Source: a virus. Taken from it: a DNA stretch of 64,000 nt. This document shows positions 3,501 through 22,200 of this stretch, in pieces. Under the pieces are notes generated by a model that had not been told where the DNA came from, did not search any database, and worked only from the letters and a program-made list of their open reading frames with translations. The stretch's first letter is position 1. Each line of letters begins with the position of its first letter. A program made the translations under genes and the position numbers. The stretch is taken from the IMG/VR virus record IMGVR_UViG_3300030103_002259, positions 1 through 64,000 of that record, one strand, 5' to 3'.

Positions 3501-6500
3501 TTGAAGCTCTTTAATTCTTCTTAACCTTTCATTACCCATTTCTGTTGAGATAGGTTGATTAAATTCATCTTTATAAGCAAACATTAAATTTGAAATCTGT
3601 TTATAAGCTTCTCCAACATCAAATGTTTTATTTTTAATTTTAGCTTGAATACCACTTATTTCATCAAAAAGAGCATTTCTTGATTTCCAGTATTCATCAG
3701 TATATTTAATTTTTAAATTCTGTCTTTTCCACTGTTCTATTTTGCGTACAAAATCACCACTTCCTCTTTCTATACCTTCACCTTCTAATTGATTTAAAAA
3801 TTCATTATATGATAATTGAAGAGAACCAGGTACAGGAATCATTTCACGAAATTGAGTACCCTTTTTATTTTCTTGTAAGAACTCAGCAATACTTTTATCA
3901 TAAATACCTTTTTCAGGATCATCTACTTTGTCAGTACCATCCTCATATTGCAGTGAAGATAGCTGCTGATAATCTCTCCAAGCAGCTTGTATAGCTGGAT
4001 AATTTTCAAGTCTGTCTAGCTCGTTATCAAATTGATTTTGTAGGTTATTAAATATCTGAAGTTTTTCTTGACGAATAGTATAAGCTAACTTACCAATATC
4101 TGAATCTTGAAATCTTGATTGTTGTTCATAATACTCTGGCACATATTCTTGCCACATATAATCATTATTGAACTGTTGTAATTTTTGTCTAGCATCAGCT
4201 AATTTTTGAAGATCCCCTTCTTGTCTTGCTTCTTCTACTGCAAATTCTAAAATATCTTGTTCATATCTCCAACCATTACCAAACTTATTTAGAAAAACAT
4301 AAATTTCCTTAGCAATAGGTTTACCTGATTCCTGGTCAAAAAACATTACAGTATCTTTTTCACCAAGCATTTCTCTCATTTGAAAAACATTCATTTTAGA
4401 GAAATTTACTTTAGGTAATAGATCTGCTAACTTTTTTCTAAAAACCATAGACTTTCTCCAAACTTCATTCTCAACCTCTGTTCTTTGGTTTTGAATATAC
4501 ATAGATAAAGGACCTACTATAACATCATTAGAAGAACTATAGCTTTCTAACCACCTATTAAAAAATGAAACATCATGAGCATTACCAGTTAATGCATTTT
4601 TTATTCTTTCTTCATCAACAACATAATCTTTGTATTCTTTAATAAAAGATTCTAATATATTTTTAGGTACTCCTTTTTTTACTAAAGCATCTACATCTTC
4701 TTGACTAAAACTTTGATCAACTACTTTATCATATGTATCTTTTATTGCATTTTCAAGCTCTTGAGGATTTTTAAAAGCCTTTTGAAAAGCAACGTTAAGA
4801 TTAGATTTAAATCTATCATTAACAAATTCATTCATGTAACCTGTGATTTCCACAAACCACTGTACATTATTATCAAGTAAAATTTTAGCAACTGATGTAT
4901 TAATTCTAGTAATATTATTAGTTATCTCATTTAATGTCTGATAAAATAGATTACTACTATCTGTGTATTGACCATTTTCCATTAAAGTAGTGTCAATATC
5001 TTTTAACATTTCTAACCAAGCTCTTGCTGTATTCTTATAAAGAAACATTAGTGCAACTGTATGTCTATTATTTAAACTAGGATCTGCTTGTATCTTAGCT
5101 AAATCTTGCAACATATTTTTACTCATTGTATTAATAGTATCAAAGCTATTAATTAAAGACTGGGTCTTGTTTTTTATATTAATTGCTCTACGCTCTTCTC
5201 CATCAAGAACCTTTTGAATTTTTTCATCTTCAGTATCTTTTGCAAACTCATCAAAGTTTACATAATCAGAAAGACTCTGTCTTATTCCTGGTAATAGTTT
5301 TGTTGTACCTTTTTGAAATAAAGCTTCCTTAAGCATTTTTTTAGTACGCTTATCACTCTTAAAATTTCTAGCGTTATTTAAAACCTGAATGCTTGTATTC
5401 AAAGCTGTTTCTATAATTTGCTGAAGAGATTCTACGTTAGTATGGTTAGCTAAATCCTGAGCTCTTTCGTTAACCATTCTAGCATACATAACTAAATCTT
5501 GCTCAGTTATATCAGGTGTACCTAGATCAAAATCTTTTTCAAGCATCATTTTTGCTAGCTCATTCAATGTAGTATCTTGATTAAGCTTGCTTACCTTAAT
5601 TTTACTACCAAATACACCACGTAACATTTTTTTAATTGCCGCTAGCAGCTTTTTAATAAACTCTTGAAACCCTATAGTTTCAACCTGATCTAAAACTTGA
5701 TTAAATGATTTCAATTGTAAAGCGTATGCTAGAACCTCTTCTTTAAATAAATCAGAGTCAACATCTAATTCAGGATATAAGCTTAAAACATGTTGTTTTA
5801 TACCTTGACCTTCCTCAGTAGCCATTGCTTGATTGTATAGATTACTAAATAGCTTTTTATTATCTCTGCGTATAGCTCCTAATAGTGGATGCGCAAACTC
5901 ATGAAGCACTGAATTAATACTAATATTATCACCTACGGTATATATAGTTCCTGCAAAGTAAAAACTTGGTTCTCCATTATATGGAACAGATGTATTTTCT
6001 AGTAGTTTAGCTGCTTCTTGAGGTGTAACATTTTCATAATTCATACTCATACTTAAAGCAAGCTTTTCTGAAAGAACCTTAGCTATTTCTTTAGATCTTG
6101 TATCTCCTAATTGATTTAAATTTAAGTCAATTAAAGGGACCCCCTGAATAGTTTCAAAAGGACTTTGAAAAGTAAACTCTTGTAAGTTAGGTTCATTTAC
6201 ATCTGGAGAAGCTTCTATAACTTCTTTACGTTTATAAAGCTCATCTAGTTCTGTAAATAAAGAATCATTAGGAATGGCCTTATATATTTTAACCTGGTTG
6301 TCACGCCAATATTTAGATTCAATAACATCTATTTGCTCAGAAATATTGACATCAAAAAGCATTTGCCCTTGTGTTTTAAGACCATACTTACTTGCTGCTA
6401 AAGCAGTTAACTTTTCATTTAACTGATCAAACTTAGTTCTATCTACAATACCATTAACAGCATTAGTAGCACCTTGTTTTTCTAAAAAGTTAATTGCATT

Positions 6501-6521
6501 ATTCTTTACTTCACATAACAT
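579..6521 (-). CDS. Giant virion cargo protein with zincin-like protease and LysM domain (1980 aa)
   Basis: It follows the RNA polymerase gene with a three-base gap. An HEFAH motif at residues 207-211, with a downstream Glu pair near 261-262 in LFKEEVLAYAL, fits a gluzincin-type zinc metalloprotease. Residues about 1650-1698 form a LysM-like module (the ...EGESLEEIAKKYYISVDELK... pattern), a fold that binds peptidoglycan glycans. Most of the remainder is long helical, charged, coiled-coil-like sequence. A hydrophobic stretch near 1814-1830 precedes a DPDDDD acidic patch. Family knowledge: crAss-like phages carry giant proteins beside the virion polymerase, some with zincin domains, that travel in the capsid. 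The combination suggests an ejected protein that meets the cell wall and membrane on entry. The metal site is visible; activity is inferred. Confidence 0.8.
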   Translation of the reverse strand: MLCEVKNNAINFLEKQGATNAVNGIVDRTKFDQLNEKLTALAASKYGLKTQGQMLFDVNISEQIDVIESKYWRDNQVKIYKAIPNDSLFTELDELYKRKEVIEASPDVNEPNLQEFTFQSPFETIQGVPLIDLNLNQLGDTRSKEIAKVLSEKLALSMSMNYENVTPQEAAKLLENTSVPYNGEPSFYFAGTIYTVGDNISINSVLHEFAHPLLGAIRRDNKKLFSNLYNQAMATEEGQGIKQHVLSLYPELDVDSDLFKEEVLAYALQLKSFNQVLDQVETIGFQEFIKKLLAAIKKMLRGVFGSKIKVSKLNQDTTLNELAKMMLEKDFDLGTPDITEQDLVMYARMVNERAQDLANHTNVESLQQIIETALNTSIQVLNNARNFKSDKRTKKMLKEALFQKGTTKLLPGIRQSLSDYVNFDEFAKDTEDEKIQKVLDGEERRAINIKNKTQSLINSFDTINTMSKNMLQDLAKIQADPSLNNRHTVALMFLYKNTARAWLEMLKDIDTTLMENGQYTDSSNLFYQTLNEITNNITRINTSVAKILLDNNVQWFVEITGYMNEFVNDRFKSNLNVAFQKAFKNPQELENAIKDTYDKVVDQSFSQEDVDALVKKGVPKNILESFIKEYKDYVVDEERIKNALTGNAHDVSFFNRWLESYSSSNDVIVGPLSMYIQNQRTEVENEVWRKSMVFRKKLADLLPKVNFSKMNVFQMREMLGEKDTVMFFDQESGKPIAKEIYVFLNKFGNGWRYEQDILEFAVEEARQEGDLQKLADARQKLQQFNNDYMWQEYVPEYYEQQSRFQDSDIGKLAYTIRQEKLQIFNNLQNQFDNELDRLENYPAIQAAWRDYQQLSSLQYEDGTDKVDDPEKGIYDKSIAEFLQENKKGTQFREMIPVPGSLQLSYNEFLNQLEGEGIERGSGDFVRKIEQWKRQNLKIKYTDEYWKSRNALFDEISGIQAKIKNKTFDVGEAYKQISNLMFAYKDEFNQPISTEMGNERLRRIKELQQDILDYQQESESRTGLTSQQLEELRNLTAMNNRGEISPGSAEADRFIYLSDLQEDIGLSSEDQVRLRELFKELGSMTDTLPTEYYLDALNFSLSKQNIKEISESEVESFINSDEFQEILDNDKAFKDWFELNHIEKTFYNTKTKSLDIKYLPTSANVVKIPSNPDHIETTTIIDTNTNEEVVLLGVPAPRHSRFEVKNEYRTIPFGENREDYVGKYVDNKGNWLPREHGQDQEYSAKDDRFISQRFKQLSANKNSAEYQLLKAMTEYHLDMQKGMSNYGKLYMDMPRYATKTNDIYQKLQRGKYGERFRDLKAGLKNFFSQEFGKSKVDFENDQNYDAKNNLVNTDLNGEQVSYIPITGIYNLDLDITDADVISTMFRYALSIQTQGKLLESLPLVESLLDTLEDPENQLKELDTFSKNQIGLKGKLKQVLKKGATNNRAGQVRSLLEREYYGKQVAGLEENHPMMGKILQKIQGFSSWGSLALNIPADLKNQISGYVQTIIESTGGDFITSKDLALSTPWSTKAMLEWTRKGIYSIGPGAISTQLIQIFDPVFKTTDEFGREVMRSMVKDLTNMEWVFMHRKFGEMDVAVKLFGSFLHGQKVTQILSDGTEKSIRYVDAWEKDADGIIKLKEGVHPGWNNVPVYHDYVEGESLEEIAKKYYISVDELKAKNRIKSEIQLEDGQEIVIAKSEKFAGFKNKLQGTSRRLFGVYDRMGAPEGNKYVIYRLFFFMRKWFTPMFVNRFGFDPKTATLTDGGYRYDWALGKYTKGYYISAFQTLVKVIKSKGADYQYLTDQEKGDFRRFASEGLATIMLALISSMLLGFDPDDDDRWKKLKRRSAAYGQGGYDTYGFLANHALLLTLGVQAETTAFIPLPRVAGQNFGLDDYTKMITSTSSAWYNTTTLYAQIFGDVLSFISGNGLPEYQKDTGPYWWQQKGTPKIYKKMFKAIGFTGGTGDPVTVLKNLEGSSTRFS

Positions 6522-6524
6522 ATC

Positions 6525-9500
6525 TTAACATTTAAACGGATCTTCTTGTAGCTCTAACATAGCAAGTACTTCTTTATCACTTATACCTTGAGTTTGAGCA
6601 ACAAGTTCTTCAACAATATCATATTGTGTAGATCCAGGATTTAAATAACCAAATTCTTCAAACAGCCTTTTACTTAAATATACGAATAATTCTTGAGGTA
6701 AATTTTTACCAAAACCGCTTTCTGGAAAAGCTATTACTACTTGTGATTCGTTTACTTTTTTAATCTCATTTATTCTACGTTCATAGAGCTCTTTGATACT
6801 TTCATATGTATAGGGTGTATTAGCCATGCCATCATTTTGAGCATCTTGACCTGTAGGTATATCTATTGACATGTCATCAGCTAATGCCACAAATCTACTT
6901 TGACCACCAAAGTTTATAGTATAATCCTCTTGTAGCTCTTTAATAGTACTATTATGAATAAAGACTACATCTTGATTAGCATTAACCAAGTTTTCATAAT
7001 AACCTGTTTGAGCGCCATTATCATTATAAGTAAATATATTAGATCTAGCTGTTATAGATAATCCTAGTCTATTAGATGGTACTATATCTTCATTAATATC
7101 TTCTTCAATATCTTCTTGAACCGTCTCTTCTAAATTTCTTTCCTGTGTAGGATTAAGAACATCTTTTATTCTAGCAGGATTTTCATAATCTATATTAGCT
7201 AAGTAATCTTTAAACAACTTTTTATTTGGGTTATACTTACTATTTTGATTTTGAAATAAAGTAAAAAAGTTATCTAAAAACTTATTACCAGCTGTATTCA
7301 AAGTGTTTAAAAGGTCCTTTTCACCTAACTCAAGCAATTGTATAAACGGAGTATAATCTACAACATTAGTAATGCTTACTTTTTCTTTATTTAATCCTGA
7401 TTGCATAAAAGCAAAAAGCTTGAGATCTGTAAAAAACCTACTAATTCTGTAATTTTCTTCTTGATCTATAGATTTAACTACTGAAGGATTAGCAAGATCT
7501 AATAAATTTTTTGTGTATAAATTTGACAAATCATTAGTATAATCCTTTTCAGGAATATATAAATTAAATACTGTTTGATTTGAATTAGAATCTAGCTGTA
7601 GCTTTTGAAGAACCTCATAGTTTGACTTAAGGTTTGGAAACTCATCTAATAAATCTGCATACCTAATACCAAAAGCATAATTAGGATCTATAAACATATG
7701 ATATATATTCATAGTATTAGTAAGCGCTCTATGTGATATCATTTTTTCGTAAGTATACCTTGATTGTTTTGCACTGCTCAAATCAGGTTTCATTTCTTGA
7801 GTTCTAGATAATTCTGTTGCAAACTCTGTAGTTTTTGATAATGTTTGTATAGGTAATACATCTCTTAAAGTTTCCCTCTCAAGTACAAACTTTAAATACT
7901 CATTATAATTTTTACCACCATTGCGCATAAATGTACCAGGGTTCAAAGCAAACATATCTCTTGATTCATAACTAGTATCTGAGTCTGAACCTTCTTCCCA
8001 ATCTCTATTTATAAATTCTTGTTGCAATGTTTTCTCATCTACATATAAAATACCATCCTTAACAAACGCACCTCTAGAAAAATTATCTATAGGTTTTGTA
8101 CGAAAAGATGTTTTAGTTTCAAAAGAATTATAGTAATCTCCTAATTTATATTTTCTTAATTCATTTTGAAATAAAAACGAAACTAAATCGTTTCTAAAAG
8201 TAGTTGCAAATTGTTCTTTGTTACCACCAGGAAACATCATTGGAATTAAATCTCTTGTAATTTGCTCATCTTTAACAATTAAAAAGTCAGATACAGCTTT
8301 ATTAAATCTTAATGTAAACAATGATTTACTTAAGGCAATAGATAAAGGGCCATTAAAGAAAGAGCTAATAACAGAATCATTCATAAAAGACTCTAATAAC
8401 TCTGCATGATCACCTACCTTTTCCATGTCTAGATCAGCTTCTGTTTGTTCAACATCAGATATTGTACTTTTAGTACTTGTATCTGGATTAGAACTAAGCT
8501 TAAGTCTGGTTAAACCAGAAACCTGAGCTTCAAGAGACAAGTAGTGTAAAAACATAGCATGGGATAAATCACTTTGCTTATCATTAGTATCTATGACTTT
8601 ACGCATTTCATCTAAAGTAAAAGTCTTATCTTTTCTATTTGAAAATAAATCTGATATTAAATTTTCACCTGTTTCATTTCTTGCAGAATTTTTAGACTTC
8701 ATATTTAATCCCGCCACATTATTATTACCAATAACATTACTAGCAGCTTGTCGTTTAGCAAACTGCGGAGCATTAGGCTCTGTACCTAACAACTTAGCAA
8801 AAGTAGATTTAGCTAAACGTTGTTGTTCAACATACTCTCTTACAAGGGGGTTTGAAACAAAATAAATAGCTTCTTCAACTGGAACACCAGCTTTTACAAG
8901 ATATAATAACTGAGGTGCTACCTCATAATTACCTTGTATAAAAAAGATCCATGCATCTTTCTCAACGTCAACCCAACCATTCATCATTTGTGATATAACA
9001 TCAGCTATCTTATTTACTCCATCTACATCATATTGATTAGATAAAGAAATTCTATCAGTGTCACCAAATTTATGATGTCTCAGATACATATTGACCTGTC
9101 TTTTCTCAGATTTATTTTTACCAATATTTATAAACTCAGGCATTTTAGCACCTGCCGCATTCATTATTACATTAAATGTATTTTCTACAGCACCTAAACC
9201 TAAAGTTCTTTTACCTACAGCATTTGACTCATGCTTATATAAGTTATATAGAGGCTCAAATATTCTTGTTGGACTAATGCCTTTGATATCTACAAACTTA
9301 CCATCCCTATCCATAACAGCATTAGGATTATAATCCATAACTTTTTTAGAAAGCTTGTCTGCAATGTCTTTTAATATAAATGTACCATTAGGTGTAATCA
9401 AACTTGCGTAGTTATGTGGCATCTCTAATATCTCTCTGATATCATTGATCATTTCATTCTCTAATCCTGCTTTTTGTTTAGCTATCTTTTGAGCTTCTAA

Positions 9501-12500
9501 TCCATTCTTAGCAATATCTGATTTTAGTGCTTTTGTATCTGAGAACTCAGGTTTAATAATCTTACCTACTGCATCTAAATTATTCATAAAGAATGTAAGC
9601 TTATCAATATCAAAGTCACCACCTGATTTAGCTACAATTTCTTCTGGAACTACTACTATATTACTAGCTTGTGGCGCCAAGAACTCATAGACCTCAGCAA
9701 ATTCCATTGAGTTAAGACCTTGTACTGGGATACGTACACCTACCAGTGTAATAGCTTTTCTATTAGCCCCATCATTAGCATCTAACCATGACTCATCTTT
9801 AATCTTTTCATTAAGTCTAGCCAAGCTAGCTTCAATATCTAGTTCACCATTCTCATCAGTTACCTTAATAAACTCTAATGACCCTGCTTTCTCTGAATAT
9901 TTTAGATTAAATAGATTGTAATAATCACCTTGCATAGCAATGGCCACTTTCATAGCAGCTGTTTTATTACCTTTCTTTTTATCTCTAAAATATGTAGGCA
10001 AGTTTATACCATATAGCGCGGATGATTTTTGAACTAAAGGTTCACCTTTAATCTTAGGCTTTATGATCCTCTTGTTTATAATAGATAATAATACCTTCTC
10101 AATTTTGGCAGCATCTGGATGAAACGAGGTATCATGTTGTAGTTCACCACTGTCAAATACATCTATAAATTCAATGAGATTATCACTTAGTAGATCTTCT
10201 CTTTCTAAATTAGTTCTAATTATTTGGACTAATTTAGCGGTACTACCTGGACCCTTGGGTACAAAATTATTTTCACCATCTTCTTTGTATCCTATTTCTT
10301 CTAATAATTCAAACTTAGCGAGCTCCGTATAATCAGCAACATGATCTAAATATCTTTTTACTTTTTTGCTAGTTATTTTAGAATCATCTGTAGTATCAAT
10401 AACCCCTTGAGTATACAAACCTTCTAGTATAAGTTTTCTCATCTGAGTTGAGAATATTGATTTACCCTTGTAAGATTTATTTACTTCTGTCTGATTTTTT
10501 AAATACTCTGCAAATATTACATTTTTAGTAAACTCTAATTCATTATTAAACTCACCATTAACTAATACTTGATCACCTGAACCGATGTGAGATATCTTTG
10601 AGCCTGATTCAAAAGTTACATAATCAATTTCTTGATCCATCATTTTCATATGCATCTGATGAAGTGGAGATGTTTCCTCAACAACCCCTGGGACTAATGG
10701 CGCTAAAGAGAACTTATGAAAAGATGTTACAGGAAGACCCTTATTTTGTATATTACCGAAGTACTGTACCTTATAAGGAGGGAAATACTCTATTAAATCT
10801 TCTATAGCTAAACTTTCACCTAATGCTACTTTTCTATAAAGACGCTCTTGATTATCTGTCCAATTATTCTCAAGCTTTTTAAGCATTCTATAAGACTCAA
10901 ACGTAACATACCCTTGTCCATCACCAACTTTCATACCTAAGTATTCACCCATGGCGGTTTTAGCAAGCTTTTTAGCCTTATCCCGATTTTTAAGTCTTTT
11001 AAAATAAACTGACTCTAGATGCTTTAGATACTCCGAATACATTGAAGAATCATTTTCAATCTCTTTAATAATAGCAGTATTTAAAGTTCCATCATATCTA
11101 CGTTTAGGTTTACCTAATCTATCAGCATAATATCTTTTAAATATAGAATTATCATTAATAAACTTTTGAGCTCTAAGATCACTACGGAAACCTCTTCCTC
11201 CTGCACCTAGACCAGCATTACGTTTATGAAACTCTTCTTTAGCATGATTATATTGAACAGCATCACCATAGGCCAATATAGTTGTTTCAAACTTATGGAT
11301 CCATGAATTATACACATATGCTTTAACAAGTACTTTCTGCAGCTCCTCGGACGTTAAATTGTAACCCCTAATATCTACTTTATCCAACAAAGATTGATCT
11401 ACATAAGAAGCTTTACTTAACTTGTTATTAGTCTGCTCTGTAACACGATCAAAGTAATCTTGGATATCTTGACGAACATTTTCTAATAACTCAGCATCTG
11501 CTAATAGAACAGGTTTAAAATTATAATTTGGATTATTTAATTTTTCAGCATCTTTAACTTTAGCATATATAGCTTTCTGTGTATCATAAGATAATATATC
11601 ATCAAAGGCTGTTAATGCTGATCCAGCATCTACTTCTTGACCCAACTTATTTTTAACTTTTCTATTATAACCTTTAATATTACTATAGTCACCAATATTA
11701 TAGCGAACAATTCTATTAACCTCACCAGCTAAATAATTAGTCATTATATCTGTACCACGGTCTTCTCCAAACCTTCCTGGCATAAAAGCTTGAACATCTA
11801 CATATAATTTAGCACTAGACTTACCATCATAAGTATTTATAGGATTACTAGTTGTAATACCCATTGCTGTATTTTTAGAAGCATGGCGCATAAATTCTTC
11901 TACACCATTTAGCAGCATACTATGAAACTCTTGTAACATCTTACTAGTTGAATCCATAGAAGCAGTATTACGTCCTACAGAGTTTTCATTTTTATCTATT
12001 AATTGAGTACCTGCTACATTTTGTAAAACTAATGCATTCTCTTTTTTCTCACCAAATGTACTTGATCCTTCTTGTAAATCAAAAATAGAACCTAGTAACA
12101 CTGAAAATTGAGTTTGAGTATTATTATCAGGATTCATCCAATACATATGTTTGAATAACTGATTAGGATCCGCATCTCTATAACCTGTAAGCTCTTGCCA
12201 ACTACTAGCATAGTTAATTGATGTAACCATTCTAGTGATAGTATTATCTAAAAAATGTTCCCACACCCTACTTTTTTCTGGGTTAGTAACACTAAAGTTT
12301 GAAAATCTATCTGAAAATTGATTTTGTAATTCAGCTAAAACTCTTAATCTACCTCTGACATCTTCATTACCTTTACCTTCAAATAAATTCTTCAAAGGAT
12401 TCATTGCAAACTCTTCTTTAAAATCTTTATCTGTAGATTTATTTACATTTTCTAAAATTCTATAAATCTGATCAACTCCAAATCTAATTGCAAACCGTGG

Positions 12501-15500
12501 ATCATTAACAATATTTTGAATAGCAACACTAGACATATCCATTTCTACACCAATGGCTCTTAAAAAACTATTAGCTTTTTTATAATTAAACTGACCATTT
12601 GTACCAAAATCTTTAAGAACTTCATCTATTTTTAATACAGGTCTTGTTTTAACTTTACTAACATATGGATTTGTAGTAGAATCACTAACTTTAAAATTAA
12701 CTTCCCAATCTCTTCTAACTTGATATACATCAAAATTAGTTCTAGACATTCTAGCGCCATAAGTATCTCCTTCATCTTTATTAGACTGTAGATTTAGTTG
12801 TACATATGGTATTCTAGGCTTTTTAAAATCTTGCCAAAAACTAGTTTCTAGATCAAACTCAGCACCATCTTTGTACTGTGCTCCAGGATTAGGTAGTAGA
12901 TTTAAAAGCTGAGATAGTTCAGGGTAGTTTTGAGAGTTCTCCATGATCCTGTTGTACATATCTTGCTCATCAAAAGAACCTTGTAAAATTTTAGCTAACC
13001 TATTCCAAGTAATATCTATAGGTTGTATATCAGGTATACCAAAAAAGTCATTAACTATTATAGCCTCGCCAGCATCATTCTTTTCAACTTTATTAATACT
13101 AGCTAAAAGCATTAATGTGTCCATACCAGCAAGTTCTCTTGAAGATATGGTATTACCACCTTCTCTTTTAAATAGCTCACTAGCTTCTAAATTACTTGGG
13201 TCTTCTATTTCAACAAAAGTATCACCTAAAACTTTATAGATTGATTTTTCAATATTATATGAAATAACATTTTCTTGAAGTATATCAGTTTCAAAAACTT
13301 CTACAGGATCACCAAAATTGTCAATAATCTTATCTAGAAGAGTTAGTTTATCTTTTAAATCTTTTTCTAGAACTACATCTGGATTTTCTACTTTGTCATT
13401 GTTTTCAATAACTTGATCATAAATATCTCTATACTGCTCTCTAATACCAAAAACTTTATCAGAGACATCTTGATATAAAGCTATTTTATCATCTGTATTT
13501 CTTAATATCCTAAGTCCAGCTGCAGTAGTTTGATCTTCTAAATTGTATAATCTTATCTCATTTGCAATTAAATTATCTACAAGTTTTGAGGCTTTAATAG
13601 ACTCATCAATAGAAAAGTTTTCATTAATTGTTTTAGACCTATTTAGTTCAGTGAATATAATATTATTCATTGAAGGTGTAAGGTTAGATAAAATTGAAGG
13701 GTTGTCAGAAGCTCTATATAAATTTTCAAACAATTCTTTAACTACAGGTATATCAAGTGGAGTACTAACAACATCTCTTTTACTAACACCTGTAAATAAA
13801 GATTTTAAAAAGTTATATATCTTTCTAAAGATTCTACCTATAACACCTTGACGTTTTTGTTTACCTTTTGATATAGCAAAAGTTCTAAAAGATTCTGCTA
13901 AGTCTTCTTCAATTTCTAAAAATGATTTGTTTTTCCACTTATCATTTTTCATAACCTCATTATACAGTGAGATCTTTTCTTTTCTTGTTAAAAACAACTG
14001 TGAGAAACCATGCCATGCTTCATGATATACATCTACGGATGTACCACCATCTCCTTCATATAAAGTTATACCAAAGTTTTGCCAAGTAGCATAAGCATCT
14101 GAATTTACTATTTCAGTAATTCTAGTTAAACTAATGTGTTTACTTAAAGGTGAATTGCTCCACCAAGTCTCAGCTGCATCACGATCTTTTTTAGATGTAA
14201 AAACTTGCTTTAAATAAGCTTTTTCACGCTTAAGTTTTCTAGAACTATTTAAATTACGACCAGGTGTATTTAAAATATCATCTAATAAATTTACCTTAGT
14301 TGCAGGATTATTTTCTACAGCTTCTTTTTTAGACTCAGCCTTTTTAGCTTTAAACTTTGTCTTTTTCTTTTTAGGAGCTTCCTTATCTTTTTTCTTAGAT
14401 TTAGCTTGTTCATATCTTTTTTCAATATCTGTTTTTGTTCTTGTTTTAGGTCTACCCACCTCATATGCTTCTTCTGAAGCAGGTAAAAGATTGTTAGGGA
14501 TAGAATAGTTCATATATGCATTTAACCCATTAAAGTATGCGTTATCTACATCTTGAAATTCTATTTTCATAAAAGGAGCTATAAAATCAAAATACTTTTG
14601 TTCATTAGTAGTGATTTTACCTTCTGATATATTGTAATCTGTAAAAGACCCATTTTTATATGTACCATTAAAATGCACATTAGCTGGATATGTCTTCACA
14701 CCTTTAAAATCAACAGCCGACATTAAATGCTCTTTTATTAAAGTTCTAGTATCTTCAGTATAAAGATCTTCTTGTTTAATAGTCTCACCTTTTATTTTAA
14801 CTACAAGTTGAGGTACATTATCAATAACTCTCATTTTTGCAGTTATTCTATCTCTATTTGTTCTCTGACCTCTTGGTATAGAGTTATTTATAAACACCTC
14901 AAAATAAGCTTGTCTTTGTTCAGGTGTAAGCTCTCTTCCATTCAGTGTAGCCTTTGTAGTTAATACGTCAGCAATCTTATCTGCAAGTTCAGATGTGATA
15001 TCTCCTCTTTGAAAGTAAATTTGTTGATCAATAGTTACTCCAGGTTTTTTTCTAGATACCATAATCATTTGATACCCCTTCTTAGGACCTGTAGTTATTT
15101 GCTCATATTGCTTCACATCCTCTAAAGTAAGACCAGCTTGTGATAAAGACATTGTTCTTGTCCTATCTGTTTGGATACCAAAACTACCACCTGTAATTGG
15201 TAGTAATACTGCAGCGTCCTCCTCTGATAATAAAAACTCTCTTAATCTATAAAGCTCATTTAATTGTAGCTCTTGCTGCTCTGCAATTTCTTTTACTTTT
15301 TGCTCATAAAATTCTTTAGTAACCTTTTTAGCTTTTGGTTGAGCTTCCATTTGCTTAACTAATCTAGAAGCAATAACTTCTGGTTCAACTAGATTATAAT
15401 GTCTTTTACTCCTATTAGATAGTAATAGTTTATCACCAACTAAATTTACTTGTCTTAAATAACTATATACTATTCTTCCAGCGCCTTCTTCTGTTATCCT

Positions 15501-16274
15501 AGCATTATCATCAAAATATAAAGGTCTACCTTCAGCATTTGATACTATTGTAATAATACCTTCATAGCTAGGATTTTTATCTAGAAAATTACGGTCATCT
15601 GTAGTTAGCATTTCTTTTGGGACCTCAGATGATTTCATTGCAACTAAAGCTACAGGTGTACCGTCATAAAGAATCTCATTAGTATCTGACTCTTTTTGTC
15701 TTGCTAGATATACTATATCTTTTATAACCTCATAAAAAAGTTTTTTTTCTGGATCTAATTGATTTCTTTCAAACTCAGAAACTTCTTCAGGATTAGCAGA
15801 GTAGGCCATTTGTGTAGTAGTTGCCCAAGGAAAAACAATCTTAGCGCCTTCATTCTCATTATAAGACCAAAGAATTTTTTCTTCTTTACCTTCTACTGGT
15901 TTAGATGGTTGACTTTTTCTTTCTCTATTAGCTTCTTTTATTTCCTCTTCAGTTTCTTCTTTAGTTGGTTTTGGATCTGTTACGGCCATCATTACATTCC
16001 AAAGATTATTAAAATCTACACGCATTTTAGCAAGATTGTTAAAATCAAAATCTTGCTCAACTAATTTTTCTATAATAGCTTCATCTTGAGAAACTAAATT
16101 TAAAATATCAGGAACAGCTTGAGCATAAAGTTTTGCTTTAGCTTTATCTGGGACAAGGTCATACAACTCTCTAATAAAAGAATTTATATTAATTGGTTCA
16201 GCACCCTCCATTATATCTTTATATAATAGAGAGTATACTTGAAGTGCTTGTTCGCTATTTAATTTACAGGCCAT
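6525..16274 (-). CDS. Virion RNA polymerase of crAss/YonO type, giant fusion protein (3249 aa)
   Basis: The catalytic loop reads S-G-G-D-F-D-I-D-K-L, with Asp at 2220, 2222 and 2224, matching the DxDxD metal-binding loop of two-barrel RNA polymerases. An RxP element (R2181, P2183) stands 39 residues before it, as in multisubunit beta-prime. Upstream, DYVTFESGSK (about 1885-1895) and a KSIFSTQMRKL element (about 1935-1946) look like the second, lysine-bearing barrel. The N-terminal half also holds an HEAWH zinc motif (751-755) with Glu 790/794 as possible third ligand, and a Lys-rich linker near 615-650. Known: in crAss-like phages such a polymerase is packaged and injected to transcribe early genes. 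It sits between other giant cargo genes with gaps of 2-3 bases. The polymerase call is firm; the fused protease is odd and may act in maturation. Confidence 0.92.
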   Translation of the reverse strand: MACKLNSEQALQVYSLLYKDIMEGAEPININSFIRELYDLVPDKAKAKLYAQAVPDILNLVSQDEAIIEKLVEQDFDFNNLAKMRVDFNNLWNVMMAVTDPKPTKEETEEEIKEANRERKSQPSKPVEGKEEKILWSYNENEGAKIVFPWATTTQMAYSANPEEVSEFERNQLDPEKKLFYEVIKDIVYLARQKESDTNEILYDGTPVALVAMKSSEVPKEMLTTDDRNFLDKNPSYEGIITIVSNAEGRPLYFDDNARITEEGAGRIVYSYLRQVNLVGDKLLLSNRSKRHYNLVEPEVIASRLVKQMEAQPKAKKVTKEFYEQKVKEIAEQQELQLNELYRLREFLLSEEDAAVLLPITGGSFGIQTDRTRTMSLSQAGLTLEDVKQYEQITTGPKKGYQMIMVSRKKPGVTIDQQIYFQRGDITSELADKIADVLTTKATLNGRELTPEQRQAYFEVFINNSIPRGQRTNRDRITAKMRVIDNVPQLVVKIKGETIKQEDLYTEDTRTLIKEHLMSAVDFKGVKTYPANVHFNGTYKNGSFTDYNISEGKITTNEQKYFDFIAPFMKIEFQDVDNAYFNGLNAYMNYSIPNNLLPASEEAYEVGRPKTRTKTDIEKRYEQAKSKKKDKEAPKKKKTKFKAKKAESKKEAVENNPATKVNLLDDILNTPGRNLNSSRKLKREKAYLKQVFTSKKDRDAAETWWSNSPLSKHISLTRITEIVNSDAYATWQNFGITLYEGDGGTSVDVYHEAWHGFSQLFLTRKEKISLYNEVMKNDKWKNKSFLEIEEDLAESFRTFAISKGKQKRQGVIGRIFRKIYNFLKSLFTGVSKRDVVSTPLDIPVVKELFENLYRASDNPSILSNLTPSMNNIIFTELNRSKTINENFSIDESIKASKLVDNLIANEIRLYNLEDQTTAAGLRILRNTDDKIALYQDVSDKVFGIREQYRDIYDQVIENNDKVENPDVVLEKDLKDKLTLLDKIIDNFGDPVEVFETDILQENVISYNIEKSIYKVLGDTFVEIEDPSNLEASELFKREGGNTISSRELAGMDTLMLLASINKVEKNDAGEAIIVNDFFGIPDIQPIDITWNRLAKILQGSFDEQDMYNRIMENSQNYPELSQLLNLLPNPGAQYKDGAEFDLETSFWQDFKKPRIPYVQLNLQSNKDEGDTYGARMSRTNFDVYQVRRDWEVNFKVSDSTTNPYVSKVKTRPVLKIDEVLKDFGTNGQFNYKKANSFLRAIGVEMDMSSVAIQNIVNDPRFAIRFGVDQIYRILENVNKSTDKDFKEEFAMNPLKNLFEGKGNEDVRGRLRVLAELQNQFSDRFSNFSVTNPEKSRVWEHFLDNTITRMVTSINYASSWQELTGYRDADPNQLFKHMYWMNPDNNTQTQFSVLLGSIFDLQEGSSTFGEKKENALVLQNVAGTQLIDKNENSVGRNTASMDSTSKMLQEFHSMLLNGVEEFMRHASKNTAMGITTSNPINTYDGKSSAKLYVDVQAFMPGRFGEDRGTDIMTNYLAGEVNRIVRYNIGDYSNIKGYNRKVKNKLGQEVDAGSALTAFDDILSYDTQKAIYAKVKDAEKLNNPNYNFKPVLLADAELLENVRQDIQDYFDRVTEQTNNKLSKASYVDQSLLDKVDIRGYNLTSEELQKVLVKAYVYNSWIHKFETTILAYGDAVQYNHAKEEFHKRNAGLGAGGRGFRSDLRAQKFINDNSIFKRYYADRLGKPKRRYDGTLNTAIIKEIENDSSMYSEYLKHLESVYFKRLKNRDKAKKLAKTAMGEYLGMKVGDGQGYVTFESYRMLKKLENNWTDNQERLYRKVALGESLAIEDLIEYFPPYKVQYFGNIQNKGLPVTSFHKFSLAPLVPGVVEETSPLHQMHMKMMDQEIDYVTFESGSKISHIGSGDQVLVNGEFNNELEFTKNVIFAEYLKNQTEVNKSYKGKSIFSTQMRKLILEGLYTQGVIDTTDDSKITSKKVKRYLDHVADYTELAKFELLEEIGYKEDGENNFVPKGPGSTAKLVQIIRTNLEREDLLSDNLIEFIDVFDSGELQHDTSFHPDAAKIEKVLLSIINKRIIKPKIKGEPLVQKSSALYGINLPTYFRDKKKGNKTAAMKVAIAMQGDYYNLFNLKYSEKAGSLEFIKVTDENGELDIEASLARLNEKIKDESWLDANDGANRKAITLVGVRIPVQGLNSMEFAEVYEFLAPQASNIVVVPEEIVAKSGGDFDIDKLTFFMNNLDAVGKIIKPEFSDTKALKSDIAKNGLEAQKIAKQKAGLENEMINDIREILEMPHNYASLITPNGTFILKDIADKLSKKVMDYNPNAVMDRDGKFVDIKGISPTRIFEPLYNLYKHESNAVGKRTLGLGAVENTFNVIMNAAGAKMPEFINIGKNKSEKRQVNMYLRHHKFGDTDRISLSNQYDVDGVNKIADVISQMMNGWVDVEKDAWIFFIQGNYEVAPQLLYLVKAGVPVEEAIYFVSNPLVREYVEQQRLAKSTFAKLLGTEPNAPQFAKRQAASNVIGNNNVAGLNMKSKNSARNETGENLISDLFSNRKDKTFTLDEMRKVIDTNDKQSDLSHAMFLHYLSLEAQVSGLTRLKLSSNPDTSTKSTISDVEQTEADLDMEKVGDHAELLESFMNDSVISSFFNGPLSIALSKSLFTLRFNKAVSDFLIVKDEQITRDLIPMMFPGGNKEQFATTFRNDLVSFLFQNELRKYKLGDYYNSFETKTSFRTKPIDNFSRGAFVKDGILYVDEKTLQQEFINRDWEEGSDSDTSYESRDMFALNPGTFMRNGGKNYNEYLKFVLERETLRDVLPIQTLSKTTEFATELSRTQEMKPDLSSAKQSRYTYEKMISHRALTNTMNIYHMFIDPNYAFGIRYADLLDEFPNLKSNYEVLQKLQLDSNSNQTVFNLYIPEKDYTNDLSNLYTKNLLDLANPSVVKSIDQEENYRISRFFTDLKLFAFMQSGLNKEKVSITNVVDYTPFIQLLELGEKDLLNTLNTAGNKFLDNFFTLFQNQNSKYNPNKKLFKDYLANIDYENPARIKDVLNPTQERNLEETVQEDIEEDINEDIVPSNRLGLSITARSNIFTYNDNGAQTGYYENLVNANQDVVFIHNSTIKELQEDYTINFGGQSRFVALADDMSIDIPTGQDAQNDGMANTPYTYESIKELYERRINEIKKVNESQVVIAFPESGFGKNLPQELFVYLSKRLFEEFGYLNPGSTQYDIVEELVAQTQGISDKEVLAMLELQEDPFKC

Positions 16275-16276
16275 TA

Positions 16277-19200
16277 TTAGCAGTTTTCTGAATTATCTTT
16301 TAATTGTCTTAATAGGTCTTCTCTGCTATTTTCAGTGGCATTTGTTTTAGCCTTATCTATAGCTTCTTTATCTTCACCTAATTTTTTAAGATCAGCAATA
16401 TTTTCTGTTGCTATATCATTATCTTCTGGCGTAATTTCTAGTTCCATAGTTTCCTCTTCAGTTATTCTACTAAATGTTGATTTAAGCTCAATCTTCGAAT
16501 AATCTCTTGTATTTTTACTAATTATATTTTGCACAACAACCAACGGTCTAATACTTTCTTTATTCTTTATACTTTTTACTAAATATATAGATCCATCATT
16601 ATTAAGAGACAAATATGTTTCACCAGGAATTAAATTTTCTATATCCATTGACTTATTAATCTCTTGTAACTTAGTACTATAAGCTTCTTTAACAGCGTCA
16701 AGGTTTAATTCTGAACCGTCTTTATTAGCTTCCAAGAATGCTTTTTCATAAGCAGCTTTAATTGTGCTAGCATTAGCCTCATTAATATCTGTAATCAAAG
16801 GATTCTCTTGCTCCTCTCTAGTTTCAAGAATATCTAAACCTCTAGATTTTTTAATATCTGCTTTTAACTCTCTTGTTGTAGACGGTCTAAGAACTCTCTT
16901 TGTCTCTTGTCGTCTAGGCTCTGCATTCTCAGGTACACTAGACCTTTCCTGTATTTTTTCGGGATCAAAGAGGTCTTTGACTTCTCCTTTTTGTCTTTTA
17001 CTGATTTTGCCATCCTTGTTTAATTTAATTAATTCTAAATCTGATAATAGTAAATTTAGTGAATTTATTTGTCTTACTATATCATCTACAATATCACCTC
17101 TGTTTATAAAATCAAATCCTAGCTGTTCAAGCTTTATAATTGAATCTTTAACCCAATCAATAAGTTCTTGACCATTCTGATATGATACACCTTCTAAACC
17201 TTCATCTATTAATGTATCCATAGCAGCAGGATAGTTTTCTGATAGAATAGAATCTATAGCTTCTGATATAGTTTGATTGATAGATAATCTTCCAATTTCT
17301 TTTAGATCTCTAACTTCATCAGAACCAACCCTATTCTTAGTTATTTTTTGAAAACTATTAGGTAATTTATTTAAAGCAAAAATATAACTATTTAGATTAC
17401 CACCTCGTAAATATACAGTTGGATTGTTGTTAGATAACTCTGTTATTTCAGAGTCAATTCTTTTCTTCTCTGACTGAAATCTAGATATTTTTCTAATAAT
17501 ACGATTAGTATCATTTTTAGATTTAGCTTTAGCCTGGTTTTTCCTGAGCTGAAATATTTTAACACTTAAATCAGATGAAGCTTTCTTAAGTCTATTTATT
17601 TTATTTGAATTTTGTTTATAGCTTAATAATGTAATAGCCCCTGAAGCATCGCGCAGTACATCATATTTTACACCATTAATTGTAGCAATTGATTCTTGTG
17701 GGTTATCAAACTTAGCATTTATAACTTGTGCATCAACAACTCTTTGCTGACCCACTTTTTCAATTGTAGCTGTAGGTTGTATACCTATATCCATGATACT
17801 AATATCACCGTCACTAACAGGTTTTAAATTGAATAATATCTCTGTTATTTCTGATCCAGGTTTAGCTTTTTTCTTTTCTAATTTAGAAATTTCAGATTTT
17901 AAATTTGATATAACCTCATCACTCTTAAATTCACTAGCTTGTTCTAAAGACAAATCATTACGAAGTTGTTCCAAAGCAATCTCTGTTGCCATATCTGCAG
18001 GGGCTTCTTGTCTCAATGCGTATCTACCATTAGGTAATTGAACTAAGGTTCCTGTTTCTCCCTGATAGATAATCATATTGCCTATGTTATCACGGAGACT
18101 AAGCTGTGTAGGATCAGAAGATGGTATTGTTGAGTCTACAGAAACCTCACCTTTAGCATTTTCCCCTTCGATTTTTGTTAAATTTGGCTCTATTCTCTCT
18201 ATACCATAGTTAGCAACTTCTGTAAGATACTCTATTTCTATAGTATCATCTTGAATGCCACTCATCATACCTGGCTTTTTAATAGAGTTAATATAACCAT
18301 CAATAGTTACATTTAATTCTAATGGTAATAAACCAATAGACTCTACATTTATACCAGTCATATTATAAAATAAATCACTGTAAATAGTTTGTTGGGCTCT
18401 AAAGTAGGATTCTTTATCATACCTTTCGCCTGTACCAAACCTTGACCATGTACCAGGTTGAGCAGTTTTAATATCTATAATCTTAACATTACCTTCTGTA
18501 TCTACAGCAAGAAGATCAATTTCTCCTGTAATACCGTGTTCTAATAAATTTTTATCAAAAAGTAAAACATTCTCAGAAAGAATTTGCCACTTACCATCTA
18601 TAACACCTTCTCTAAGTTTAGAAATAATACCACTACCTGTTTTGAATAATGCATCAAAAGCCTCTCTTGACATAACATCTGAAATTTTCACAGGAAGACC
18701 TTTCATTTCTACAGTTGAATCATAGTTAAAATCTATAAATCCTGGACCACCTTGTTCAGCTTTAGGAGTTAAAAACATTCTAGTAAGTATATCTACAGTA
18801 TTACCACTCTCTGAGTAATGATTCATTGCAAGTTTTCTAACAACACGATCTAGTGTTTCAAAAGTTGGATTCTTTCTAAACGCATTCTCTAAAATACCAA
18901 GCTTCTTTTCACTACCAAAACTATTTTTATAATTACTATAAGCTAGCTCTCTAAATCTTGAAATAAACTTATCTATTTTTGACTCTAGAGTGGGTAGCTT
19001 ATCACTTTCAAAAATAGTATTATAAAGATTTTCTATTGGACCAGGCTGACCATCTTCTGTTTTTTCAATTGGATCATATCTAAACTGAGGATCTCCTGTT
19101 AAATCTTGCTTAACTTTTTCAGCTACACTAGTTACACGAGTTGGTCTAGGGTCAGTTTCTTCACGGTCTGCAAATCTTCTACCAGTAACATTACCATCCG

Positions 19201-22200
19201 CATCTTCAATCTCAACAACCTCATTACGTCTATTAATAATGTTATTTGTAATATTTAAAATTACTTCTTGCGCTAGAGTTTGAGGTTGAAAAGCTTTAGA
19301 TCGAGCATCTAAATATCCACGTATTGCTTCTAAGTCAGAATTAATATTTGCTATATCTTCAGCAGTGAGTTGAACTTTTTCATTAGGTTTCTGAGCATTT
19401 GGTGCATACTCTCCATCACGTAGTATAGATTCTAATTTATTATATATTTTACTAATTTCCTCTGACTTTGTATTAGCTGTAGCTTTATAAGGTAAAAAGT
19501 TAAGAGTAGGAGGTTTTGCTAACTCTTCTGCTTTTAAACGGTTTACTCTAGCTAACTCTTCATTAAGCTCATCAATTAAATAAACTTGTTGTTTTAACCA
19601 TCTATCCCTTAAAGTTTCATATTTATTAGGATCTACCTCTTTTAAATTTTCACTCTCCTCTAAATCAGTTACTAAAAATTCATCAAACTGAAAAGTTATC
19701 TCTTCCTGAGCATCAACATCAAAATCTTTAAATGGTGTATCTGTAGTGTAAAACGCAGGAGCATTTATTTCTCTATCAGAAGATCTAAACTCATCAGTCA
19801 ACTTTTCTAAAAGAGCATCATACTCCTCATTAATTTGTTTAACAGACTCCTTATAAGATACATTTATTGGATCTAACAGATAAGCATCAGCGTTTTCTCC
19901 AACTATAAGTTTATCAGTTTCAGCATCATTAATTTCTTGTTGAAGCTGATCTTTAACATCAGTCAAATATGCAGACAAAATTAACTTTTGAAATGCAGCA
20001 CCTACCTGAGTATCTCGTAATACAGACTCATCAACATCAGCTTTTATTTTATCAGCAGTCTTATTTAATTTTTGTAAGCTTTCTGGTATAGTAATTAATC
20101 TTTCTACAGATTCTTGAAACTGTTCCTCAGTAATAAACCCTTCTGCAACTGTAGATTGATATGCAGCCTCCAGCAATACATAATCATTACTTTCTAATTG
20201 ATTTAGAATACTATTTAGTAGGTTCATTCTTGCAACTAAATCTATACGTTGTTGCTCAGTATCAACCTCTCTTTTATCAATCTCTTTTAGTAGTTCATCA
20301 AGAGTATTACCAAACTTTTCTTTAAATGCAATATCAAACTCTTCTTTTTCATAATTAAGAGCTTCGGTTCTAGCAGCTTCTATCTCATTTTTTCTAGCCT
20401 CAAAAGTATCTTTATCAGTAACATCCTCTTGATCATCTCTCTGATAGTCTGCCTCAGCAGCCATTTCAAATAATTCTACATACTCCTCATATAAAAGACT
20501 ATCCTTATTTATTATTCTTTTGTTAGTTATATCTATAAAATAATCAGGTAGTTTATCATGATCTTCAACCCAGTCTGCAAACTGTTCTAGATCTACAAAG
20601 ATACCTTTATCTGCAAGCTCATTTATTAAAGCATTTTTTTCTATATTAGATTGATTAGCATCAACTATATCTTTAAAGTATTGCTCTCTATTATTATAGA
20701 GATCTTTCATCCACTTAAAATTAGAATCAACATGCTCAAAGAAATCTTTTGGATTACTTAGTAGATTAATATATGTAGCAAGACCAGCATTTTCATTTTT
20801 AATAATGTGCATATTTAATAATGAATCAAATAAATTATCAAAACTTTCATTATCTAATTGCATCTCAAGCTTTGCTCTTTCTTGTGGATCAGAGACTAAT
20901 GACATTAATAAATTTCTAAATGAATCTTTGTATCTTGAAAATTCAGTAGTTTTACCATCTTCAAAATCTTTCATCATTTCATTTAAGACCTGTATCTCAA
21001 CCTCTTCTGGGGTCAATGATGGATCTTTTTCCATCATTTCAGTCTTAAGATTACTAACAATTTTATTTTTAAAGTATGCATTTATCAGATCATTCTGAGC
21101 AGATTCATACTCTTTAAGAGCTTCTATTTTTGCTTGTCTAAATTCTAGGTCTTGATTGATCTCAGATTGATATTCTAAATTAGGATTAGATCTTAAACCA
21201 TCTAACTCAGTTTCTAACATTGCAATCTCTCTACTTAGCTTTGCAGGATCTACTAAAGAACTTACTTCTGAGAAGTTTAAGTTTTTAATAGCATCTACTT
21301 CACTTAGCATATTATAAAGCTTGCTTTGTGTTTTTAGGTTCTCATCAAAAGAACTTTGAAAAAAGACAAAGTTTTGTAGCGCTAATTGGTACGCTCTATT
21401 ATATATTTGAGCCTTCTGATAATCTTCACTACCTTTTTTAAAGTCATCTAAATTAATTTGATACTTCATTTTATCTCTAGCAGCACGGTACCTCTTAGAA
21501 ACCATCTCTGCAGACTGTATATTTGCATCTAAATCAGCTAGAGCTTTTTGACCCTGACCTGACTCAAGCCCCCAAGCTTCTTCAATATCTTTAGGACTAG
21601 CTTCTTTATAAGACTTTAAATTCTTTAAGAACATATCAAAAGTATTATTCTGTAAAGATGTCATAGCAGCACTCATAAATGCGGCAAATGCAGTATCTTT
21701 AGCCTCTTTCTCAGTTATTTCTTCTGAGTCTATTGTTTTAGCAGCTAGCATCTGATTTGCATAATTACTAAATCTTGGGTCAAAAAAGAATTTAGCATCT
21801 TTATGCATTGTGTTTAAAGCATCTTTCATTTGATTAGCCTGTTCTTCTTGACTATCTAAATACTCTTGCCAATTATTTCTATGCTTATAAAATCTATTGT
21901 AACCCATAGTGGCACCATTAACCAATCTACCTGGTAACTGTAAGATAGTTCCCATGGCAAAACCTGATGCAAATGTTTCAAAACCTTGAGCACTAATTTG
22001 TTGATCTATACCATTACTTAATTGACCCAATACATATTGCATGTTTTTAGCGCTTGGGTCATAAAAAGTTTTCTTATAATATTGTTTAGTAGCTTCATTT
22101 AAAACATCTTGAGCAGTCTCTTGAAATCCTTCCATGACATTACCCTTAAAGTAATTCCATGCAGTATTACCCCATACTTTAGGCTTAGTAAATCCTTTTA

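What the first reader, a model, noticed from the sequence alone, without database searches (positions are those of the whole stretch)
6525..16274. RNA polymerase fused to a zincin-like protease site in one 3249-aa chain
DFDID (2220-2224) with an RxP element identifies a crAss/YonO-type polymerase, but the same polypeptide has HEAWH at 751-755 with a plausible third ligand. A protease fused to the virion polymerase could release the active polymerase from the giant precursor after packaging or entry.
Basis: partly seen in the sequence, partly recalled or inferred. Interest (0 to 1): 0.68.

Follow-up and report, generated by a model that had tools for sequence, protein, structure and literature searches.

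The report
Cysteine-ended phage polymerase chain with zincin

Summary
The minus-strand ORF 6525-16274 (3249 aa) has HEAWH at 751-755 and DFDID at 2220-2224. The zincin residues (HExxH plus EExxAE) are invariant in all 119 aligned relatives. The polymerase is of the crAss vRNAP type (BLASTP E 2e-10 to phi14:2 gp66). The same zincin occurs across Crassvirales, sometimes in the neighbouring chain.

The proposed job, releasing the polymerase from a precursor, is weakened. It was already proposed for N4-type vRNAPs. crAss001 virions contain the giant chains at high molecular weight. phi14:2 gp66/gp67 lack the domain. Relatives with everything in one 5,500-aa chain have lost the zinc ligands (HEAxH to WEAFR).

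Unexpected find: the upstream chain R, the polymerase P and the downstream chain Q are nearly cysteine-free, except at ends that face another chain. In 135 clusters: R C-terminus 92/92, P N-terminus 92/92, P C-terminus 90/92, Q N-terminus 87/92; outer ends 3/70 and 2/67. The cysteines follow the chain breaks: extra splits gain a pair, fusions lose it, and fully fused chains have none.

Best reading: cargo proteins coupled end to end by disulfides for ordered ejection. The rule is shown; the bond is inferred.

The parts
6525..16274 (-). Chain P: crAss-type virion RNA polymerase with N-proximal zincin A, 3249 aa; only two cysteines, C3 and C3249 (last residue)
13665..14207 (-). Zincin domain A (about aa 690-870 of P)
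   Evidence: 63-sequence alignment A3 and model; HMM hits in Crassvirales
14010..14024 (-). HEAWH, aa 751-755 of P
13893..13910 (-). EEDLAE, aa 789-794 of P, third zinc ligand helix
9603..9617 (-). DFDID, aa 2220-2224 of P, polymerase catalytic motif after RIPVQG
16266..16268 (-). Cys3 codon of P (end facing R)
6528..6530 (-). Cys3249 codon of P, last codon (end facing Q)
16277..23614 (-). Chain R, 2445 aa, related to crAss001 gp47 over its PD-(D/E)XK region; single cysteine, C2445 (last residue)
16280..16282 (-). Cys2445 codon of R (end facing P)
579..6521 (-). Chain Q, 1980 aa, related to crAss001 gp49 and phi14:2 gp65; single cysteine, C3
6513..6515 (-). Cys3 codon of Q (end facing P)
5529..6128 (-). 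Zincin domain B of Q (modelled stretch aa 132-331): helix, three strands, HExxH helix, third-ligand helix
5889..5903 (-). HEFAH, aa 207-211 of Q

Best explanation
The 3249-aa protein (P) is the crAss-type virion RNA polymerase, the middle member of a three-chain cargo block R-P-Q. It carries a real zincin domain near its R-facing end, and Q carries a second near its P-facing end. The three chains are almost free of cysteine except at ends that face another chain: R's C-terminus, both termini of P, and Q's N-terminus. Most likely these terminal cysteines form interchain disulfides in the virion, R-S-S-P-S-S-Q, giving one string of about 7,700 residues that leaves the head in order through a narrow tail. 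The reducing host cytoplasm would then uncouple the polymerase without proteolysis. The zincins are probably active metalloproteases used after ejection, on the cargo or on host proteins, and are not generally required to free the polymerase. Shown by sequence: the domains, the invariant active site, and the cysteine rule with its dependence on chain breaks. Inferred: the disulfide bond, the order of ejection, reductive release, and protease activity and target.
For: Over 135 P clusters: R C-terminal Cys 92/92, P N-terminal 92/92, P C-terminal 90/92, Q N-terminal 87/92. Outer ends: R N-terminus 3/70, Q C-terminus 2/67, fused-PQ C-terminus 2/22. In the window's own clade only 14 internal Cys in about 375,000 aa. 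The cysteines follow the breaks. Where R is split in two, both new ends carry Cys (L079, L080, L084). Where Q appears split, the 760-aa piece has Cys at both ends (L231). Where R and P are fused the junction pair is gone (cr55, cr50, cr118, cr4). Where P and Q are fused only the R side has it (crAss002; L147-L157, L208). Where all three are fused there is no Cys at all in 5,220-5,639 aa, with colinear R, P and Q homology shown without using Cys (L216, L217, L219, L234, L238). In crAss001 and cr85_1 the R and P genes lie apart on opposite strands yet the rule holds. The ORF upstream of R has a C-terminal Cys in 2/36, both of them the R1 half of a split R. Structural disulfides exist in the crAss001 virion (PMC10172136). 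N4-like vRNAPs are Cys-free, read as a need of passage (PMC3715699, PMC3915230), so the retained terminal Cys stand out.
Against: No experiment here shows a disulfide. The held paper on crAss001 describes reduced and non-reduced virion samples but reports no cargo disulfides. Counting alone does not exclude P closing on itself by C3-C3249 with R pairing to Q, or homotypic pairs between copies. Some gut members have extra internal cysteines (for example cr131_1). The hosts of gut members are anaerobes, so when oxidation would occur is unclear. The N-terminal test was lenient about start codons (any Met within the first 70 residues of the open frame), although the listed chains nearly all start M-x(1-3)-C.
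Confidence: 0.7

Rival explanations
1. One reading: zincin A cuts the giant chain so that the active polymerase is released after packaging or entry.
For: The active site is invariant in the window's clade. Zincin A lies between the R-like part and the polymerase in fused chains, or at the end of R in crAss001, that is, beside the R/P border. The same function has been proposed for phage and plasmid zincins, and P1 DdrB is processed (PMC5512222).
Against: Zinc ligands are lost in fully fused chains; domain absent from phi14:2 gp66/gp67; near full-size giant proteins in crAss001 virions; N4 vRNAP, which has such a domain, is packaged unprocessed; no cleavage site was sought experimentally.
Confidence: 0.15
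2. The zincins are injected effectors that cleave host proteins (defence, envelope or transcription factors) early in infection; they ride on the polymerase and Q only for delivery.
For: Two different zincins, and extra HExxH sites near the P C-terminus in some relatives, in proteins of which the crAss001 counterparts are virion cargo; effector roles are among those proposed for polyvalent proteins; retained in crAss001 although the polymerase is already a separate chain.
Against: No target known. The domain follows the R/P border over all Crassvirales found rather than moving about as effectors often do; no substrate evidence.
Confidence: 0.4
3. Terminal cysteines do not link chains to each other: they bind a metal between chain ends, tether each chain to another virion part, close P into a ring, or pair like with like between copies.
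For: Single cysteines at chain ends could serve any of these; several copies of each giant protein per virion are considered possible in crAss001 (PMC10172136).
Against: Outer ends (R N-terminus, Q C-terminus) lack Cys; a new break gains a pair and a fusion loses it; natural fusions R-P, P-Q and R-P-Q show the same ends can be joined by a peptide bond.
Confidence: 0.2
4. The terminal cysteines are an artefact of codon use, gene overlap or shared descent of alignable tails.
For: TGT is the prevailing codon (195 of 211), and relatives share descent.
Against: Flanks differ between groups (DPFKC, LKAIC, TCFRA, SSDCQ, KCKLG) and Cys sits anywhere from the last to about the tenth-last residue; both codons are used; the rule holds where the genes are not adjacent (crAss001); chains rearranged by fission or fusion obey it.
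Confidence: 0.02

Closest known systems
crAss-like virion RNA polymerase cargo: phi14:2 gp65/gp66/gp67, crAss001 gp47/gp49/gp50
   Same: Homologous block R-P-Q; DFDID with RxP; BLASTP matches; the same terminal cysteine rule; zincin A in crAss001 gp47 and an HExxH in phi14:2 gp65.
   Different: In the window the chain break lies N-terminal to zincin A, so zincin and polymerase share one chain; P is 3249 aa against 2180 and 2412. Suoliviridae (cr118_1, cr4_1, cr55_1) already have zincin and polymerase in one chain, so the fusion is not unique.
Phage N4 virion RNA polymerase with zincin-like metallopeptidase (MPTase), Iyer et al. 2017, PMC5512222
   Same: Giant virion polymerase fused to a zincin; nearly or fully Cys-free (N4 gp50, gp51 and gp52 have none); zincin B profile matches the N4 MPTase (hhalign probability 89%, E 2.4e-6).
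   Different: N4 polymerase is of the T7 single-subunit type, with the zincin C-terminal; no terminal cysteines. Zincin A matches N4 only weakly (probability 5%, E 0.008), although A and B match each other (81%, E 1e-5).
Polyvalent proteins of phages and conjugative elements (PMC5512222)
   Same: Multidomain injected proteins with HExxH zincins and an amphipathic helix after the domain; processing by the zincin was proposed there.
   Different: That survey's text does not mention crAss phages (search); no end-to-end cysteine rule is reported in the passages read.
P23-45 tape-measure-fused virion RNA polymerase, PMC10770324
   Same: Virion polymerase inside a much larger structural chain.
   Different: No zincin or cysteine coupling mentioned in the passages found.

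Membership tests
crAss-type virion RNA polymerase | DFDxD metal-binding motif with upstream RxP | tested here: met
   DFDID 2220-2224 after RIPVQG, present in all relatives that cover the region
crAss-type virion RNA polymerase | Sequence homology to the proven polymerase phi14:2 gp66 | tested here: met
   BLASTP E 2e-10 (2173-2483) and 7e-6 (1649-1894), colinear; segment HMMs E 6e-17 and 2.5e-17
crAss-type virion RNA polymerase | Two double-psi beta barrels in one chain | not tested
crAss-type virion RNA polymerase | Packaged in the virion | not testable with these tools
   known for crAss001 gp47/49/50 by mass spectrometry (PMC10172136); not for this phage
Zincin-like metallopeptidase, domain A | HExxH and downstream Glu ligand, conserved | tested here: met
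   119 of 119 rows
Zincin-like metallopeptidase, domain A | Zincin fold (N-helix, three strands, two active-site helices) | tested here: inconclusive
   both active-site helices modelled, strands not (residues 59-69 of the model have pLDDT below 50); no PDB match, best viral matches were other crAss giant proteins
Zincin-like metallopeptidase, domain B (chain Q) | Zincin fold topology | tested here: met
   model pLDDT 81.5: helix, strands 30-34, 55-58 and 61-65, HExxH helix 71-89, third-ligand helix 126-145; but Foldseek found no significant PDB match
N4 vRNAP MPTase clade | Profile similarity to the N4 gp50 MPTase | tested here: inconclusive
   domain B 89% probability, domain A 5%
N4-type (T7-like single-subunit) vRNAP | T7-like polymerase domain | tested here: not met
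   no Pfam or PHROG polymerase hit; the chain is a DFDID/crAss-type polymerase
Zincin-like metallopeptidase | Proteolytic activity | not testable with these tools
   needs biochemistry

The most novel reading that the evidence does not exclude
Crassvirales, and the window's clade in particular, couple their giant injected proteins end to end through terminal cysteines, making a disulfide-linked polypeptide train (R-P-Q, with two to four cars depending on lineage) that is threaded through the tail and uncoupled by reduction in the host. Gene fusion replaces the bond by a peptide bond; gene fission adds a new cysteine pair.
Probability: 0.68. Interest if true: 0.93.

Novelty: categorically new. 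Interest (0 to 1): 0.84.

Why it matters
How proteins much wider than the tail bore get through it, in order, is an open question for crAss phages and other tailed phages. The cysteine rule is a strong and simple sequence signature, found in every lineage sampled here including cultured phages, and it makes that question testable with one non-reducing gel and a re-search of existing mass spectra. If right, it is a new way to deliver several large enzymes as one covalent string and release them by the redox change on entry. It also gives a rule for correcting start codons and gene splits in these genomes (crAss002 gp33 is one case). For the zincin, it shows that a protease-type site beside the polymerase is a widespread Crassvirales feature, and that it has been lost exactly in single-chain forms, which argues against the simple release model.

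Tried and rejected
Pfam and PHROGs gave no useful hit for the chain. Phmmer and profile searches of PDB sequences found nothing. Foldseek of both zincin models against the PDB found nothing significant; the viral library gave only other crAss giant proteins as weak top hits. Homology of zincin A to the N4 metallopeptidase: weak, left open. The split polymerase ORF in L013/L052 looked like a beta/beta-prime fission; the DNA suggests a single-base frameshift, the fragments lack Cys at the false break, and the real P end and Q start obey the rule, so it was dropped. Cysteine-switch latency for the zincin (as in matrix metalloproteases): rejected because the same terminal cysteines occur in chains without any zincin (phi14:2 gp66, crAss001 gp50). 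Translational or gene-overlap explanation of the terminal cysteines: rejected because R and P genes are apart and on opposite strands in crAss001 and cr85_1. Association of active zincin with chain breaks (112 of 125 blocks with terminal Cys have an HExxH; of the four complete fully fused clusters only one has) is suggestive but rests on few fused lineages. The held library lacks Yutin 2018 and Drobysheva 2020, so whether either notes the zincin or the cysteines could not be checked.

Full report
WHAT IS THERE. The ORF at 6525-16274 is on the minus strand, 3249 aa. HEAWH is at 751-755 and DFDID at 2220-2224. It is the middle of three adjacent giant minus-strand ORFs: R (16277-23614, 2445 aa), P (6525-16274) and Q (579-6521, 1980 aa). 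By BLASTP, P matches phi14:2 gp66 (E 2e-10) and crAss001 gp50 (9e-17), R matches crAss001 gp47, and Q matches crAss001 gp49 and phi14:2 gp65. The record is an 83,391-base virus contig. It is therefore the crAss-type virion polymerase block. Pfam and PHROGs do not recognise P at all.

THE ZINCIN. A profile search brought in 28 and then 80 relatives. In all 119 aligned rows H751, E752, H755, E789, E790, A793 and E794 are invariant. The second scan used patterns inside the domain, but the first used mostly patterns elsewhere in the chain, and every relative that covers the region had the site. The model places HExxH and EExxAE on two helices; its strand region is poor and it matched no solved fold. 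The profile finds the same domain in named Crassvirales: crAss001 gp47 near its C-terminus, and cr118_1, cr4_1, cr7_1 and cr108_1, where in cr118_1, cr4_1 and cr7_1 it shares a chain with the polymerase. tblastn hits of this domain in the phage collection were crAss-like phages wherever the record is classified. So the fusion is real but not unique to this phage. Q carries a second zincin (HEFAH 207-211), conserved in 48 of 48, whose model has the textbook helix, three strands and two-helix order. A and B resemble each other (hhalign 81%, E 1e-5), and B resembles the metallopeptidase of N4 virion polymerase (89%, E 2.4e-6).

DOES IT RELEASE THE POLYMERASE? Iyer et al. (PMC5512222) described zincins fused to N4-type virion polymerases and proposed autoproteolytic processing, noting that N4 polymerase is packaged unprocessed. 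Four things weaken it here. crAss001 and crAss002 carry the HExxH in R, not in the polymerase chain. phi14:2 gp66 and gp67 lack it. crAss001 virions show gp47, gp49 and gp50 as high-molecular-weight proteins (PMC6235969). And in relatives where R, P and Q form one chain of about 5,500 aa (L216, L217, L219, L234), the domain is still recognisable but both zinc histidines are replaced: YHEAFH in crAss001 corresponds to YWEAFR. A single chain is where a releasing protease would be needed most.

THE CYSTEINE RULE. While looking at chain ends I found that R has one cysteine, its last residue; P has two, residue 3 and its last residue; Q has one, residue 3. Other structural genes of the window range from 0 to 66 per 1000 aa. 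The same holds in phi14:2 (gp67 C1797 of 1797; gp66 C3 and C2179 of 2180; gp65 C3) and in crAss001 (gp47 C2339 of 2341; gp50 C5 and C2404 of 2412, plus C1334; gp49 C5). Over 135 clusters of P relatives gathered from three kinds of scan, ends facing another chain have Cys in 92/92, 92/92, 90/92 and 87/92, while outer ends have it in 3/70, 2/67 and 2/22. Most exceptions are explained: truncated or interrupted ORFs, a likely frameshift (L013), or an extra chain. In the window's clade only 14 internal cysteines occur in about 375,000 residues.

NATURAL EXPERIMENTS. (a) R split in two (L079, L080, L084): R1 ends in Cys, R2 starts and ends with Cys. (b) L231: a 760-aa chain after P has Cys at both ends, and the next chain starts with Cys. 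(c) R and P fused (Suoliviridae: cr55_1, cr50_1, cr118_1, cr4_1, cr113_1): no Cys at the fused N-terminus, Cys at the end of the fused chain and at the start of Q. In cr131_1 the polymerase gene is interrupted by a homing-type insert and only the last exon-like piece ends with Cys. (d) P and Q fused (crAss002 and relatives L147-L157, and L208): R ends with Cys, PQ starts with Cys, and PQ's outer end has none. The annotated start of crAss002 gp33 is probably 32 codons too early, because an internal ATG gives MSC. (e) All fused: 5,220-5,639 aa with no cysteine, with R, P and Q homology in order along the chain, a classification made without using cysteines. Thus the number of cysteine pairs equals the number of chain breaks, from zero to three. 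In crAss001 and cr85_1 the R gene is on the opposite strand from P and Q, so gene adjacency cannot explain it.

MECHANISM. The simplest reading is an interchain disulfide at each break, giving one covalent string for ordered ejection, uncoupled by reduction in the host. Shown: sequence pattern, its tracking of breaks, conserved zincins. Inferred: the bond itself, when it forms, the direction of travel, reductive release and the role of the zincins. Consistent background: crAss001 tail and portal-vertex proteins have structural disulfides, crAss001 tail constrictions are under 50 angstroms so cargo must partly unfold, and N4-like virion polymerases are Cys-free, which others attributed to the need to pass the tail and periplasm. 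Against: no direct evidence of the bond; in-chain closure or homotypic pairs are not excluded by counting alone, though natural fusions make end joining the most economical reading.

NOVELTY. The zincin-polymerase fusion alone is a new variant of a known kind. I found no report of an end-to-end cysteine rule in the held library, but two key crAss papers are not held. The novelty section is set for the cysteine rule and its coupling reading.

LIMITS. Relatives are related by descent, so counts are not independent trials; the weight lies on the fission and fusion cases and on unalignable tails. N-terminal tests allowed any Met in the first 70 residues of the open frame for P and Q, and the first ATG for R. 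Class A zinc geometry was not measured.

Noticed in passing
window 579-6521(-), aa 1657-1695 of Q: LysM domain (Pfam E 1e-4, above the gathering score) in the third cargo chain, suggesting contact with peptidoglycan during entry.
   Followed up: no
window 16277-23614(-), aa 1684-1747 of R: Weak PD-(D/E)XK nuclease match, colinear with crAss001 gp47 1713-1899.
   Followed up: partly
window 38835-43211(-), about aa 1067 of the open frame: Another HExxH (LHEAAH) in a Cys-free 1458-aa protein; 23617-27396 and 30766-34425 are also giant and Cys-free, perhaps further cargo.
   Followed up: no
L056, L086, L102 (LIHEVKH), L093 (LIHEAAH), L099 (LLHEILH), near the C-terminus of P: Extra HExxH sites next to the P|Q border in some relatives.
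   Followed up: no
L141 15243-27980 (crAss002 gp33): Annotated start is probably 32 codons too early; the internal ATG gives MSCTPSN, matching the M-x-C start of this family.
   Followed up: yes
L216, L217, L219, L234: Pseudo-zincin: the domain is retained with both zinc histidines replaced (YWEAFR) in fully fused R-P-Q chains without any cysteine.
   Followed up: partly
N-termini of P and C-termini of R in the window's clade: Beyond the Cys, ends share short motifs: P starts M-A-C-x-L-N-x-x-Q-[IV]-x-D-[LV]-Y, many R end L-x-[DEN]-N-S-K-x-C, many P end DPFKC; possibly docking sequences.
   Followed up: no
L117 (phage N4 gp50, gp51, gp52): All three adjacent N4 virion proteins have no cysteine.
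   Followed up: no
L013 16400-16700: Probable single-base frameshift splits P in this contig.
   Followed up: yes
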